DNA from: Dehalobacter sp. | GTDB taxonomy: Bacteria > Bacillota > Desulfitobacteriia > Desulfitobacteriales > Syntrophobotulaceae | Length of the DNA stretch: 64,000 bases | Assembly (NCBI GenBank): GCA_023667845.1 | Contig: JAMPIU010000050.1 | Coordinates: forward strand, 124,001 to 188,000 | Reading direction: 5' to 3' | Shown here: positions 41,677 to 57,925 of the stretch, in pieces | Layout: every line of letters starts with the position of its first letter | How positions within the stretch are numbered: position 1 is the stretch's first letter | Notes under the pieces: generated by a model | Databases searched by the model: none | Seen by the model: the letters and a program-made list of their open reading frames with translations, nothing else | Told to the model about the DNA's origin: nothing | Program-made: the position numbers and the translations under genes

Positions 41677-41705
41677 TTGACAACATAAAGAATACATGAT
41701 AGATT
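41677..41705 (+). promoter_or_regulatory. promoter of the hydrogenase maturation operon
   Basis: TTGACA (41677-41682), a 17-base spacer and TAGATT (41700-41705) make a strong sigma-70 type promoter. Transcription would start near 41712 and produce a leader of about 190 bases before the first gene. Confidence 0.7.
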
Positions 41706-41711
41706 TTAGTT

Positions 41712-41902
41712 TAATTAAATTGCAATGTATCTGCTCACAACTCGTTTGTCTGGAGATACAAGGCTCGTTTTTTACCCGACCGCAAGGTATATCCGAGTGG
41801 AAAGGCGCTCATCCGGCATGTGTGTTTTCTTTTTTTGCCGTTTTGCTCCCTTTCCGTGGCTTGCGGAAAGGGAGTTTTTGATTTTTAAAGGAGGCCAAAC
41901 CT
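41712..41902 (+). promoter_or_regulatory. structured leader of the hyd operon with terminator and antiterminator pairing, candidate riboswitch or attenuator
   Basis: The leader holds a hairpin-rich segment (for example GAGTG pairing with CGCTC at 41795-41810) and ends in the terminator at 41846-41880. GGAAAGG at 41799-41805 can pair with the CCTTTCC of the terminator's 5' arm (41849-41855), which would prevent the terminator from forming. Mutually exclusive pairing before a coding region is the hallmark of a transcription attenuator. I do not match it to a known riboswitch class. Confidence 0.55.
41846..41880 (+). terminator. strong intrinsic terminator in the hyd leader
   Basis: CTCCCTTTCCG (41846-41856) pairs perfectly with CGGAAAGGGAG (41864-41874) over seven loop bases and is followed by TTTTTG. 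It is only 22 bases before the first ATG, so it must be regulated or leaky. Confidence 0.85.
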
Positions 41903-42154
41903 ATGAACAAAAGAATTGGTATTATCGGCATTGTGGTTGAAGATCTCTCTTGTGTGGAGCATATCAATGCGATTCTGCATGAATATGCCGGACTGGTCGT
42001 CGGACGGATGGGAATTCCCTACGGAGAACGGGGCGTATCAGTTATCTCGCTGATTGTCGACGGCAGTAATGATGAAATCAGCGCGCTGACCGGCAAACTG
42101 GGCAGAGTCTCCGGCGCGTCCGTTAAATCCATGATTACAAAAAGCAATAAGTAA
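41903..42154 (+). CDS. TM1266-family iron-only hydrogenase system regulator
   Basis: 83 residues, ATG with AGGAGG upstream. An ACT/NikR-C-like fold: RIGIIGIVVEDLSCVEHINAIL, then GRMGIPYGERGVSVISLIVDG and ALTGKLGRVSGASVKSM. This family is encoded beside [FeFe]-hydrogenase maturation genes and is annotated as a putative regulator, with no DNA-binding domain of its own. First gene of the hyd operon behind the leader terminator. Ligand and target are unknown. Confidence 0.88.
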   Translation: MNKRIGIIGIVVEDLSCVEHINAILHEYAGLVVGRMGIPYGERGVSVISLIVDGSNDEISALTGKLGRVSGASVKSMITKSNK

Positions 42155-42172: not shown

Positions 42173-43624
42173 ATGAATTTTCTTGATAAATATCAAAAGG
42201 AATTCGAGGAGTACGACAAGCTTGACCATGATTTTATTAACGACGACAAGATATGGGAACAGCTGAACAAATGGCACAACCCGTCTAGAGAAGACATGCG
42301 TCGCGTGCTAAAAAAAGCGGAGCAGTGTGTACGGCTCGAGCCGGAGGAAACAGCGATTCTTATCCAAAACAAGGATGAGGATACGATACAGGAGATGTAT
42401 GAACTGGCCCATCAGCTGAAAGAAGAGGTTTACGGAGACCGTATCGTGTTTTTCGCGCCGCTTTATATCAGCGATGAATGCGCGAACAACTGCAAATACT
42501 GCGGTTTCCGCTCAAGCAACACGGCGATGCACCGCAAAACGCTCAGTATGGATGAAATCGAGCAGGAAGTGCGGATCATGATAGAAGAAGGCCAGAAACG
42601 TACTGTACTCGTTTATGGCGAATCTCCCGCAACCGAAGTGGATTTCATGTGCGATACGATCAAAAAAGTCTACAGCGTAAAAACACAGCACGGTGAAATC
42701 CGCCGCGCAAACATTAACTGCGCGCCGCTCACCGTCGAAGAGCTGAAAAAACTTCAGGAAGTCGGTATCGGCACGTTCCAGGTCTTTCAGGAAACCTACC
42801 ACCATGAAACTTATCATAAAATACATCCGGCTGGGACCATCAAGGGGCATTACCGCTGGAGACTTTACTGTATGGACAGGGCACAGAAGGCCGGCATCGA
42901 CGATATTGGACTCGGCGTTTTGTTTGGCCTGTACGACTGGCGTTTTGAGGTCATGGCCCTTTTATACCATACCATTCATCTGGAGGAAACTTTCAACGGT
43001 GTGGGACCGCACACAATCTCATTCCCCAGAATTACTTCGGCAACCGGTACGCCGTTTTCCGATCACCCTGAGTATGCGGTCAGCGACAGCGACTTCAAAA
43101 AACTTGTTGCCGTCTTGCGCCTGTCCGTCCCATATACTGGCATGATTTGTACTGCACGTGAACCGGAAAAAGTGCGCAGGGAGGTAATCTCGTTTGGGGT
43201 TTCACAGATCGATGCTGGAACGCGCATTGGCGTCGGCGCTTATGCACAGTCCAAGGATGCAAACCAGCTTCCCGACAAAGAGCAGTTCTCCATCGGCGAT
43301 TCGCGTGCACTGGATGATGTTATCGGCGAAATATGCGATATGCAGTTTATCCCCTCTTTTTGCACGGCATGCTACCGTGCAGGCCGTACGGGAGAACATT
43401 TTATGAAGGTCGCAAAATCCAGGTTCGTACATAACTACTGCATACCGAACGCCATTTTCACGCTGAAGGAATACCTGCTCGACTATGCGTCGGATGAAAC
43501 AAGGGCCAAAGGCGAAAAAGTTCTCAAACAGCATGTCGAGCGGTTTAAAGGTGATCCAGCCTACGACACGATACTTGAGAATTTAAAGCGGCTGGAAAAA
43601 GGCGAACGTGATTTACGCCTGTAG
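42173..43624 (+). CDS. hydG: [FeFe]-hydrogenase maturase HydG (radical SAM tyrosine lyase)
   Basis: 483 residues. The radical SAM cluster motif CX3CX2C is at C103, C107 and C110 (CANNCKYCGF), and the auxiliary cluster motif CX2CX22C (CTAC ... YC) lies in the C-terminal region, which distinguishes HydG from ThiH. It cleaves tyrosine to p-cresol and dehydroglycine and yields CO and cyanide, made into an Fe(CO)2(CN) synthon for the H-cluster. Length is typical. It is 18 bases after the regulator gene and 9 bases before hydE. Confidence 0.95.
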   Translation: MNFLDKYQKEFEEYDKLDHDFINDDKIWEQLNKWHNPSREDMRRVLKKAEQCVRLEPEETAILIQNKDEDTIQEMYELAHQLKEEVYGDRIVFFAPLYISDECANNCKYCGFRSSNTAMHRKTLSMDEIEQEVRIMIEEGQKRTVLVYGESPATEVDFMCDTIKKVYSVKTQHGEIRRANINCAPLTVEELKKLQEVGIGTFQVFQETYHHETYHKIHPAGTIKGHYRWRLYCMDRAQKAGIDDIGLGVLFGLYDWRFEVMALLYHTIHLEETFNGVGPHTISFPRITSATGTPFSDHPEYAVSDSDFKKLVAVLRLSVPYTGMICTAREPEKVRREVISFGVSQIDAGTRIGVGAYAQSKDANQLPDKEQFSIGDSRALDDVIGEICDMQFIPSFCTACYRAGRTGEHFMKVAKSRFVHNYCIPNAIFTLKEYLLDYASDETRAKGEKVLKQHVERFKGDPAYDTILENLKRLEKGERDLRL

Positions 43625-43633
43625 GAGAAGTCT

Positions 43634-44722
43634 ATGGATTTAAGTCTAAAAGACCCGGAAGGGTTCTCAAAATGGATGAATTCAGCAGTAAAAAAGGAAC
43701 TTTCCGATATTATCCGGTATTTTTTTGAGGAAGCAACGGCAGAAGAATGGTCGGTGATGTCCTCTTATGCAAATGAGCTGCGGGAAAAATATTATGGCAA
43801 AAAGGTTTACTTTAGGGGGCTGATTGAGTTTTCCAGCTTTTGCAGGAACGATTGTTTCTACTGCGGACTTTGCAGAAGCAACCGAAGTGCCAAAAGGTAC
43901 CGTTTGACGCCGGAGGAAATTCTTGATTGCTGCCGGACGGGCTATGATCTGGGTTTTCGCACCTTTGTGCTGCAAAGCGGCGAAGATAAGTATTTTACAG
44001 ACGCGCGGCTGTGTCACACCATATCAGGGATCAAGGAGTTTTTTCCGGATTGTGCGGTGACCCTTTCAATGGGAGAGCGAAGTTTCGCTTCCTATAAATA
44101 CCTATTCGATGCCGGGGCTGACCGGTACCTTCTGCGTCACGAAACGGCCGATGAGGCCCATTACGGCAAACTACATCCGTCGGAACTCAGCTTAAAAAAT
44201 CGCAAACAGTGCCTATATCATCTAAAGGAAATCGGCTATCAGGTCGGAGCCGGCTTTATGGTGGATTCTCCTTTCCAGACCTTCGATACACTGGCGGAGG
44301 ATTTTCTGTTTCTGAGAGAACTGAAACCCCAAATGATCGGCATCGGTCCGTTTATTCCGCAAAAGGATACAAGGTTCCGGGGTTATTGCACGCCGTCCTC
44401 CAGTCGGACATTGGCCCTGCTGTCCCTTATCCGGATCATGCTGCCGAAAACCCTTCTGCCTGCTACTACAGCGCTCGGCACCATCGACCCCCTGGGGCGT
44501 GAAAAAGGACTAAAGGCCGGTGCCAATGTCGTCATGCCCAATCTTTCCCCGGTTAAGTACCGCAGGGATTATGCTTTATATGATAATAAAATCTGTACCG
44601 ACGAAGAGGCGGACGAATGCCTTTCCTGTCTTGCACGGCGTATTACGTCGGTCGGTTATATACCTGATTTTTCACGCGGGGACTATATAGACTTTTTAGG
44701 AAAGGATTCATCATGCGGATAG
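43634..44722 (+). CDS. hydE: [FeFe]-hydrogenase maturase HydE (radical SAM)
   Basis: 362 residues, ATG with AGGAGAAG upstream. Radical SAM motif CRNDCFYCGL near residue 74, then GEDKYFTDARLCHTI and RHETADEAHYGKLHP, as in the BioB/HydE family. HydE processes the HydG-derived Fe complex toward the binuclear precursor. Its end overlaps the aspartase gene start by 10 bases. Confidence 0.93.
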   Translation: MDLSLKDPEGFSKWMNSAVKKELSDIIRYFFEEATAEEWSVMSSYANELREKYYGKKVYFRGLIEFSSFCRNDCFYCGLCRSNRSAKRYRLTPEEILDCCRTGYDLGFRTFVLQSGEDKYFTDARLCHTISGIKEFFPDCAVTLSMGERSFASYKYLFDAGADRYLLRHETADEAHYGKLHPSELSLKNRKQCLYHLKEIGYQVGAGFMVDSPFQTFDTLAEDFLFLRELKPQMIGIGPFIPQKDTRFRGYCTPSSSRTLALLSLIRIMLPKTLLPATTALGTIDPLGREKGLKAGANVVMPNLSPVKYRRDYALYDNKICTDEEADECLSCLARRITSVGYIPDFSRGDYIDFLGKDSSCG

Positions 44723-46128
44723 AACAAGACATGCTGGGTGAGATGCAAATCAGTGACGGCGCGTATTATGGAATTCACACGGCGCGCGCGATGCAGAACT
44801 TCAAAATTACGGGCGTGCCGATTCACGCCGCGCTGGTTGACGCACTGGTATGCGTCAAAAAGGCCGCGGCAATTACAAACCGCGACATCGGCGCTTTGGA
44901 CGGAAATATTGCGGGCGCGATCATAGCGGCATGTGACGAAATCCTTTCGGGTGCACTGATGGATCATTTTGTTGTTGACTGCATGCAGGGCGGAGCGGGC
45001 ACCTCCGCAAATATGAATGCAAACGAAGTGATCGCGAACCGTGCCATCGAACTGCTTGGTGGACGCAAGGGCGACTATACCCTTGTTCATCCACTGGATC
45101 ATGTAAACTTTCATCAATCGACAAACGACGTGTTTCCAACCGCAGTGCGCATCGCTGCTATTCGCCTGCTTATGCCTGTTACGGAGCAGTTTGCCGCGCT
45201 GCAAACCACGCTTCAGGATAAGGAAGAGGAATTCTCCGATATCTTAAAGGTAGGCCGAACGCAGCTTCAGGATGCAGTTCCCGTCACGCTCGGTCAGGAA
45301 TTCGGAGCGTGGGCACAGGCCGTTTCACGCGATCGCTGGCGGCTTTATAAGGCGGAGGAACGGCTCCGGCAGGTCAATATCGGAGGAACTGCCGTGGGAA
45401 CCGGAATAAACGCCCCCAAAGCTTACATTTTCGCAATGATCGAACGTCTGCGGGAGCTCACGGGAATTGGCTTGGCACGGGCTGAATACATGATGGACCC
45501 TACGCAAAACTGTGACGTATTTGTCGAGGTTTCCGGCCTTTTGAAAGCGGCGGCGGTCAGCCTTACAAAAATTGCGAATGACTTACGGCTTTTGTCCTCG
45601 GGTCCGTGCGCGGGAATCGGCGAAATTGTTTTACCCGCCATACAGGCCGGCTCCTCGATCATGCCGGGTAAAGTCAATCCCGTGATGTGTGAAGCCGTAA
45701 ATCAGGTAGCTTTTCAAATCATGGCGGACGATATGGCGGTAACTCTGGCGGCACAGGCGGGGCAGCTTGAATTGAACGCCTTTTTGCCCCTGATTGCAAA
45801 AAACCTATTTGACATGCTTGATCTGCTTGGGTCTGTTCTTCCCCTCTTCATCGGCCGTTGCATCAGAGGAATTCAGGCTAACAGGGAAAGCTGCCTGCAA
45901 AAACTGAACGATAGCTTTACCCTGGTAACGGCTTTGAGCGGATACATCGGGTATGACAAAGCGTCCGAAGTTGCTGCCCTGTGTCGAAAAACAGGCAAAT
46001 CGGTAGGGGAAATCGTGCTGGAACAACACCTGATGGACAAACAGATGCTGAATGAAATTTTAAAACCAGAACGGCTTACGTCACCCGGAGCCGCAATGGA
46101 AAAGGAGAAAGGGCAATGGAAAATATGA
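44713..46128 (+). CDS. aspA: aspartate ammonia-lyase
   Basis: 471 residues, ATG overlapping hydE. The fumarase/aspartase signature GSSIMPGKVNPVM is near residue 317, with HQSTNDVFPTA near 136 and other fold motifs in order, and length is normal. The reaction is L-aspartate to fumarate and ammonium. Being translationally coupled between hydE and hydF is notable; ammonium could feed the bridging dithiomethylamine ligand of the H-cluster. This link is an inference. It overlaps hydF by 13 bases. Confidence 0.92.
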   Translation: MRIEQDMLGEMQISDGAYYGIHTARAMQNFKITGVPIHAALVDALVCVKKAAAITNRDIGALDGNIAGAIIAACDEILSGALMDHFVVDCMQGGAGTSANMNANEVIANRAIELLGGRKGDYTLVHPLDHVNFHQSTNDVFPTAVRIAAIRLLMPVTEQFAALQTTLQDKEEEFSDILKVGRTQLQDAVPVTLGQEFGAWAQAVSRDRWRLYKAEERLRQVNIGGTAVGTGINAPKAYIFAMIERLRELTGIGLARAEYMMDPTQNCDVFVEVSGLLKAAAVSLTKIANDLRLLSSGPCAGIGEIVLPAIQAGSSIMPGKVNPVMCEAVNQVAFQIMADDMAVTLAAQAGQLELNAFLPLIAKNLFDMLDLLGSVLPLFIGRCIRGIQANRESCLQKLNDSFTLVTALSGYIGYDKASEVAALCRKTGKSVGEIVLEQHLMDKQMLNEILKPERLTSPGAAMEKEKGQWKI

Positions 46129-57717: not shown

Positions 57718-57735
57718 GCGGATTTTTCCGCACAA

Positions 57736-57925
57736 AAAATGTAGCGCCAGAGCCCATTTGGGTTGACGAGGAAGAGGTTAATCGAAGTTTTCGGCGGGTG
57801 CCTCTCGGTGGCTTGTCATCGTTAGATTCGTTGCAAATCCGGAAAGCAATTTCCGGGACAAGAGCGGATCAAACAGGAAGAAGGTTTTTCTTTGCGGAAT
57901 CCCTTTAGTTGTCCGTACTTTCCTA
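57736..57925 (+). ncRNA. glmS leader: glmS ribozyme/riboswitch
   Basis: The core begins GTAGCGCCAGAGCCC at 57741, with self-cleavage expected between A57743 and G57744, then GGGTTGACGAGGAAGAGGTT, ATCGAAG, TTTTCGGCGGGTGCCTCTCGG at about 57797-57817, which match the conserved core (P1, P2, P2.1, P2.2) of the glmS ribozyme, followed by a P3-P4 region. Glucosamine-6-phosphate activates cleavage and lowers glmS mRNA. The outer 3' boundary is approximate. Confidence 0.92.

What the first reader, a model, noticed from the sequence alone, without database searches (positions are those of the whole stretch)
41677..41902. Candidate new riboswitch or attenuator controlling [FeFe]-hydrogenase maturation
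A strong promoter makes a 190-base leader with several hairpins, a perfect 11-bp terminator right before the first gene, and an upstream GGAAAGG that can pair with the terminator's 5' arm. The leader precedes a TM1266-type regulator and hydG-hydE-aspA-hydF. I recognise no known riboswitch class in it. Signals such as S-adenosylmethionine, iron, tyrosine or redox state would make sense.
Basis: partly seen in the sequence, partly recalled or inferred. Interest (0 to 1): 0.65.

Follow-up and report, generated by a model that had tools for sequence, protein, structure and literature searches.

The report
New RNA switch before hydrogenase-maturation genes
The stretch of RNA in front of the genes that build the iron centre of [FeFe]-hydrogenase contains a small, strongly conserved hairpin that is found in front of the same genes in many anaerobic bacteria, is absent from the RNA-family library Rfam, and appears to decide whether transcription stops before the genes or runs through.

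Summary
The 190-base leader has the promoter, terminator and anti-terminator segment described. Relatives show more: at 41771-41810 lies a hairpin of fixed design, 5'-YCU-GA-[4 bp]-RA-[2-4 bp]-loop-GA-[4 bp]-RA-RGG-3', with two 2x2 purine internal loops and near two-fold symmetry. Its central helix covaries strongly (85 sequences, 94% paired; covariation 0.76 against 0.27 shuffled). No Rfam family matches. A covariance model scanned over 398 whole Bacillota genomes hit 54 at E<=1e-3, all with hydG or TM1266, none of 159 lacking both. Copies precede TM1266, hydG, hydE, hydF, a [FeFe]-hydrogenase gene, an ECF transporter component and SsuA-type importers. The hairpin's 3' strand pairs with its own terminator's 5' arm across divergent leaders (0 of 20,000 permutations as good), so it probably works as a transcription attenuator: stabilised hairpin gives termination, free 3' strand gives read-through. 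What stabilises it is unproven. I lean to the TM1266 protein (element in 72/182 hydG genomes with TM1266, 1/32 without); a directly sensed metabolite or metal is nearly as likely. New RNA class as far as Rfam and the open literature searched show.

The parts
41677..41705 (+). sigma-70-type promoter TTGACA-17-TAGATT with TG before the -10
   Evidence: consensus scan, 10 of 12; similar site in L010, L012, L021, L022
41726..41760 (+). first leader hairpin (HP1): outer stem UGUAUCU/AGAUACA, 4x4 internal loop, short inner stem; conserved in near relatives; not shown to be a copy of the element
   Evidence: not matched by R2
41771..41810 (+). conserved element: outer C41775-C41776 with G41804-G41805; GA/AA loop; h1 41780-41783 with 41797-41800; AA/GA loop; h2 41786-41787 with 41793-41794
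   Evidence: R1 38.2 bits, whole-genome E 2.8e-6, only match in the genome with E under 1; R2 33.5 bits; covariation
41799..41805 (+). anti-terminator strand GGAAAGG (overlaps the 3' strand of the element); pairs with 41849-41855
   Evidence: sequence complementarity and partial-transcript folding; conserved across leaders
41806..41824 (+). possible small hairpin CGCUCAU/AUGUGUG between element and terminator, seen only in the window type of leader (weak, by eye)
   Evidence: sequence comparison with L019-L024
41845..41879 (+). intrinsic terminator: stem 41845-41856 with 41864-41875, then T-run
41903..42154 (+). TM1266-family protein (TIGR03959, PF21699), first gene of the operon
42173..43624 (+). 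hydG
   Evidence: TIGR03955, 505.7 bits
43634..44722 (+). hydE
   Evidence: TIGR03956, 519 bits
44713..46128 (+). aspA-like aspartate ammonia-lyase
   Evidence: NF008909, 682 bits
46116..47363 (+). hydF
   Evidence: TIGR03918, 548 bits

Best explanation
The leader is a transcription attenuator built on a previously undescribed RNA element that marks the H-cluster (hyd) regulon of many Bacillota. The element hairpin (41771-41810) and the anti-terminator (41799-41805 with 41849-41855) exclude each other. If a factor stabilises the hairpin, its GGAAAGG strand is occupied, the terminator 41845-41879 forms and transcription stops before TM1266-hydG-hydE-aspA-hydF. Without the factor the anti-terminator forms first during transcription and polymerase reads through. 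The hairpin is nearly two-fold symmetric (both strands read CUGA-NNNN-RA-RGG with complementary NNNN) and often occurs in two or three copies, which suits a symmetric protein dimer or cooperative ligand binding. I favour TM1266, the small ACT-like protein encoded directly behind the element, perhaps loaded with a small ligand, as the factor (about 45%, against about 40% for a directly sensed metabolite or metal). Shown: the structure by covariation, the regulon, the coupling to the terminator. Inferred: the sign of control, the factor and the physiological signal.
For: Strict descriptor: 38 copies in 119 leaders against 0-4 in shuffles and none on the reverse strand. Covariation 0.80 vs 0.28, 0.737 vs 0.265 in 49 sequences not used for the model, 0.758 vs 0.266 in 85. 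Whole-genome scan of 398 genomes: 54 positive at E<=1e-3, none among 159 without hydG and TM1266. Context: TM1266, hydG, hydE, hydF, hydA, ECF-S, SsuA-type importers. 40 of 42 matches in named loci on the gene strand. Element 3' strand pairs best with its own terminator arm, -13.5 vs -10.3 kcal/mol, 0 of 20,000 permutations. Partial transcripts: anti-terminator P 0.98 up to 41868, terminator P 0.98 at 41876. TM1266 link: element in 72/182 hydG genomes with TM1266, 1/32 without.
Against: No experiment. L115 and L147 lack clear anti-terminator pairing, and some second copies sit between genes, so other outputs may exist. Over half of the TM1266 genomes have no detected copy (110/182). The TM1266 association is not corrected for relatedness. 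TM1266 also occurs as a domain of an ABC ATPase, which fits a sensor of a small molecule better than an RNA binder. Folding with no factor makes the bare element weaker than alternatives (P(h1) 0.20-0.63).
Confidence: 0.78

Rival explanations
1. A true riboswitch: the hairpin, or the tandem of hairpins, binds a metabolite or metal directly (an H-cluster precursor, an iron species, or the substrate of the co-regulated ECF, SsuA-type or FecCD-type importers), and TM1266 is just one of the controlled genes.
For: Compact covarying element with conserved purine loops, tandem copies, a terminator platform, and control of biosynthesis plus import genes are all typical of riboswitches.
Against: Nearly absent from hydG genomes that lack TM1266 (1/32 against 72/182). 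Few conserved bases and near two-fold symmetry. No ligand known.
Confidence: 0.4
2. An ordinary intrinsic terminator that trims expression constantly; the hairpins have no sensing role.
For: The terminator is favoured in the full transcript (-55.7 against -51.0 kcal/mol for the anti-terminator).
Against: A covarying hairpin whose 3' strand is matched to each leader's own terminator arm, repeated before many genes of one pathway, is not expected.
Confidence: 0.05
3. Leader-peptide attenuation (for example tyrosine codons): the ORF starting ATG TAT CTG at 41725 is translated and ribosome stalling decides termination.
For: The ATGTATCT start is kept in the window type of leader.
Against: The ORF is 65, 60, 48, 14, 50, 8 and 18 codons in relatives, with no Shine-Dalgarno sequence and no conserved protein; the ATG is absent in L054, L009 and L048.
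Confidence: 0.02
4. The repeat is a DNA operator (for example for Rex or another transcription factor), not an RNA element.
For: Rex controls hydG, a hydrogenase-system regulator and an ECF transporter in Clostridium thermocellum (PMC8457756).
Against: Covariation of h1 with conserved GA/RA mismatches and variable loops, fixed orientation (40 of 42), position inside the transcript and matching to the terminator arm are RNA properties.
Confidence: 0.03

Closest known systems
Transcription-terminating riboswitch leaders of Bacillota (as a kind)
   Same: 5' leader, conserved structured domain, overlapping anti-terminator and terminator, control of one pathway plus import genes, tandem copies
   Different: No direct ligand shown; matches no Rfam class; short hairpin with few conserved bases and near two-fold symmetry
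RAT hairpins bound by BglG/LicT/SacY-type antiterminator dimers
   Same: From memory: a hairpin with two similar internal loops, bound by a symmetric protein dimer and linked to a terminator
   Different: Other sequence pattern; no CAT-domain gene among the operon products tested; here hairpin formation would free the terminator, whereas RAT binding prevents termination
PyrR-binding leaders and PyrG leader (Rfam RF00515, RF02371)
   Same: Attenuators with a similar terminator stem; pyr leaders are controlled by PyrR, encoded in the same operon (from memory)
   Different: Scores far below the curated thresholds (19.3 of 54 and 25.8 of 65 bits); the PyrG similarity is only the terminator stem
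Rex regulon of hydrogenase genes in Clostridium thermocellum (PMC8457756)
   Same: Overlapping gene set: hydG, a putative hydrogenase-system regulator, iron-only hydrogenase, an ECF transport protein
   Different: DNA-level control by a redox repressor; no RNA element described there

Membership tests
Any Rfam 15 family | score at or above the curated gathering threshold | tested here: not met
   no match in the leader of the window or in the leaders of 20 + 20 related loci
Riboswitch | conserved structured domain supported by covariation | tested here: met
Riboswitch | expression platform coupled to the conserved domain | tested here: met
   anti-terminator/terminator coupling, computational only
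Riboswitch | direct binding of a small ligand without protein | not testable with these tools
   needs in-line probing or calorimetry
RAT antiterminator (BglG/LicT) | cognate CAT-domain antiterminator protein encoded with the target operon | tested here: not met
   operon genes are TM1266, hydG, hydE, aspA, hydF
RAT antiterminator (BglG/LicT) | RAT consensus sequence | not tested
   no RAT model was run; the conserved letters differ from the consensus as remembered
PyrG / PyrR leaders | Rfam gathering score | tested here: not met
   25.8 of 65 and 19.3 of 54 bits
Leader-peptide attenuator | conserved short ORF with ribosome-binding site | tested here: not met
Autoregulated RNA-binding-protein leader (TM1266 as binder) | element restricted to genomes that encode the protein | tested here: met
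   1/32 hydG genomes without TM1266 against 72/182 with it, and 5/25 with TM1266 but without hydG; relatedness not corrected; the one exception, G338, is a draft whose same-genus genomes G181 and G214 have TM1266
Autoregulated RNA-binding-protein leader (TM1266 as binder) | the protein binds the element | not testable with these tools
   needs a binding assay

The most novel reading that the evidence does not exclude
TM1266, so far a putative regulator named from gene context, is an RNA-binding protein that reads a two-fold symmetric hairpin element, often in tandem, in the leaders of the H-cluster maturation genes and associated importers across Bacillota, giving feedback control of [FeFe]-hydrogenase assembly at the RNA level.
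Probability: 0.42. Interest if true: 0.9.

Novelty: new variant of a known kind. Interest (0 to 1): 0.8.

Why it matters
I found no published account of how cells adjust H-cluster maturation after transcription starts, and TM1266 has a solved structure but no tested function in the sources searched. A defined RNA element with a genome-wide regulon gives a direct handle on both. It predicts which genes belong to H-cluster supply (including uncharacterised ECF, SsuA-type and FecCD-type importers, which may bring in a precursor), which protein or ligand to test, and which four-base helix to mutate. Such a switch could also serve as a sensor or control part in hydrogen-producing anaerobes.

Tried and rejected
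Known Rfam class: none; the PyrG-leader resemblance is only the terminator stem. Leader peptide: ORF not conserved, no Shine-Dalgarno sequence. Folding energy as sole evidence: the upstream part is not unusual. Automatic terminator-arm swap test: weak (-11.3 vs -9.7 kcal/mol), because arms were truncated and all 3' strands are purine-rich; replaced by hand-delimited arms and a permutation test. MAFFT plus RNAalifold over whole type-A leaders recovered only part of the stem. Matches inside long ORFs or at unrelated genes (in G026, G028, G070, G227, G239, G260, G289, G307) are treated as false. HP1 of the window as a second copy of the element: not shown, although the first hairpin of L048 is (20.7 bits). 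DNA-operator reading: disfavoured by strand bias and RNA-type covariation. Literature: no paper found on an RNA element at hyd genes, but only open-licence papers are held.

Full report
WHAT WAS CLAIMED. A promoter, a 190-base leader, a perfect terminator and a GGAAAGG segment able to pair with the terminator's 5' arm, in front of TM1266-hydG-hydE-aspA-hydF; read as a possible new riboswitch or attenuator.

OBSERVATION. All parts are present. Promoter TTGACA-17-TAGATT at 41677-41705 and the region's only terminator at 41845-41875. The genes are TM1266 (TIGR03959, 109 bits), HydG, HydE, aspartate ammonia-lyase and HydF. GGAAAGG 41799-41805 is a perfect complement of 41849-41855. The full leader folds more stably than shuffles (z -3.3), but the part before the terminator does not (z -0.6), so the structural claim had to be tested with relatives.

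RELATIVES. TM1266 loci were collected from the genus, family, order, class and phylum and their leaders read. More distant leaders share only a pattern: YCUGA-NNNN-AAGG twice, with the two NNNN complementary.

ARCHITECTURE. Written out, the pattern is one hairpin: outer YCU/RGG, internal loop GA/RA, a 3-4-bp helix h1, internal loop RA/GA, a 2-4-bp helix h2 and a variable loop. Both strands read CUGA-NNNN-RA-RGG, so the stem is close to two-fold symmetric. A strict descriptor finds 38 copies in 119 leaders (two of them look spurious), 0-4 in ten sets of dinucleotide shuffles and none on the reverse strand. In a 22-sequence alignment the four h1 pairs are standard in 88 of 88 cells, with several pair types each; covariation is 0.80 against 0.28 shuffled and at most 0.21 for slid partners. 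Most of these sequences were picked by a pairing rule, so that test is partly circular. The covariance model R1 was therefore applied to other loci: 49 further sequences gave 94.8% paired and 0.737 against 0.265 (the alignment is fitted to the model), and 85 sequences gave 94.4% and 0.758 against 0.266. In 80 named loci fetched by protein similarity, 40 of 42 R1 matches are on the TM1266 strand. Named carriers include Desulfotomaculum copahuensis, Fervidicella metallireducens, Lutispora saccharofermentans, Caloranaerobacter azorensis, Syntrophomonas, Dethiosulfatibacter aminovorans, Thomasclavelia saccharogumia and some MAGs labelled Alphaproteobacteria.

REGULON. Copies lie about 5-400 bases before TM1266, hydG, hydE and a small membrane protein of the ECF transporter S-component kind (PF12822 for one homologue). 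Many genomes have one copy before TM1266 and another before the next hyd gene (L025, L026, L027, L091, L092, L138, L148, L209, L215, L239, L260). L152 has a copy upstream of a [FeFe]-hydrogenase gene, but 777 bases away. A scan with the refined model R2 adds hydF (L266) and importers of the SsuA/NMT1 family: L264 and L268 with a copy of their own, and L269 and L273 in the order element-TM1266-binding protein, with an ATPase further on in L273. L156 has element-TM1266-FecCD permease-ATPase fused to a TM1266 domain. Among 398 genomes of the phylum, R2 at E<=1e-3 marks 54: 51 of 182 with HydG and TM1266, 1 of 32 with HydG only, 2 of 25 with TM1266 only, 0 of 159 with neither. At E<=0.05 the counts are 72/182, 1/32, 5/25 and 4/159; of the last four, two lie inside ORFs, G070 overlaps the start of an unrelated gene, and G368 was not examined for context. 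A published Rex regulon of Clostridium thermocellum contains the same set of functions (hydG, a putative hydrogenase-system regulator, iron-only hydrogenase, an ECF transport protein; PMC8457756), which supports the grouping but concerns DNA-level control.

MECHANISM. In 25 divergent leaders the element's 3' strand pairs better with its own terminator's 5' arm than with those of other leaders (-13.5 against -10.3 kcal/mol, sd 0.53, 0 of 20,000 permutations). Terminator arms were delimited by hand; an automatic version was weak. L115 and L147 do not fit. For the window, partial transcripts ending at 41857-41868 have the anti-terminator with P 0.98, and by 41876 the terminator has P 0.98; total energies are -55.7 (terminator), -53.9 (element plus terminator) and -51.0 (anti-terminator). 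Hence a stabilised element frees the terminator arm and favours termination, and read-through is the likely default while the terminator is incomplete. The sign of control is inferred.

WHICH FACTOR. For TM1266: adjacency and autoregulatory position; near-absence of the element from hydG genomes lacking TM1266; two-fold symmetric RNA with few conserved bases, suited to a dimer; a single small domain, with weak similarity to the nickel-responsive regulator family, one solved relative 2NZC, no DNA-binding domain found, and invariant Arg and Lys residues. For a direct ligand: co-regulated importers, tandem copies, and TM1266 as a domain of an ABC ATPase. I put these at about 45% and 40%; the rest is another protein or signal.

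COMPARISON. No Rfam family matches and no paper found describes it (open-licence papers only). It works like a terminating riboswitch leader, or like RAT or PyrR attenuators, but by the tests listed it is not a member of a known family.

CAVEATS. E-values from shortened calibration are rough; genome counts are not corrected for relatedness; R1 and R2 miss diverged copies; HP1 (41726-41760) is conserved among near relatives but not shown to be a copy of the element.

Noticed in passing
window 57732-57880 (+): glmS ribozyme-riboswitch, 104.7 bits, a known family.
   Followed up: no
L156 (G406:C7): Element-TM1266 followed by a FecCD/BtuC-type permease and an ATPase carrying a C-terminal TM1266 domain: a fusion suggesting that TM1266 domains sense a transported small molecule.
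   Followed up: partly
L264, L268, L269, L273: SsuA/NMT1-type ABC importers behind the element, in two cases with TM1266 as first gene; G361 (L269) has no HydG at the threshold used, so the element also exists outside hydrogenase operons.
   Followed up: partly
L160, L169, L170, L171, L173, L175; also L080 behind TM1266: Uncharacterised 163-186-aa ECF S-component-like proteins behind the element; one weakly resembles ThiW (E 0.0038). Substrate unknown.
   Followed up: partly
window 44713-46128: aspartate ammonia-lyase inside the hydG-hydE-hydF operon, also in L041; it could supply ammonia for the azadithiolate bridge (inference).
   Followed up: no
G002 (L009, L046): A genome of the same genus has a different hyd operon (TM1266-hydE-hydG-hydF) with another type of leader, which suggests that leader and operon were exchanged as a unit.
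   Followed up: no
L241, L227 (MAGs labelled Alphaproteobacteria): Element directly before hydG in contigs labelled Alphaproteobacteria; horizontal transfer or a mislabelled bin.
   Followed up: no
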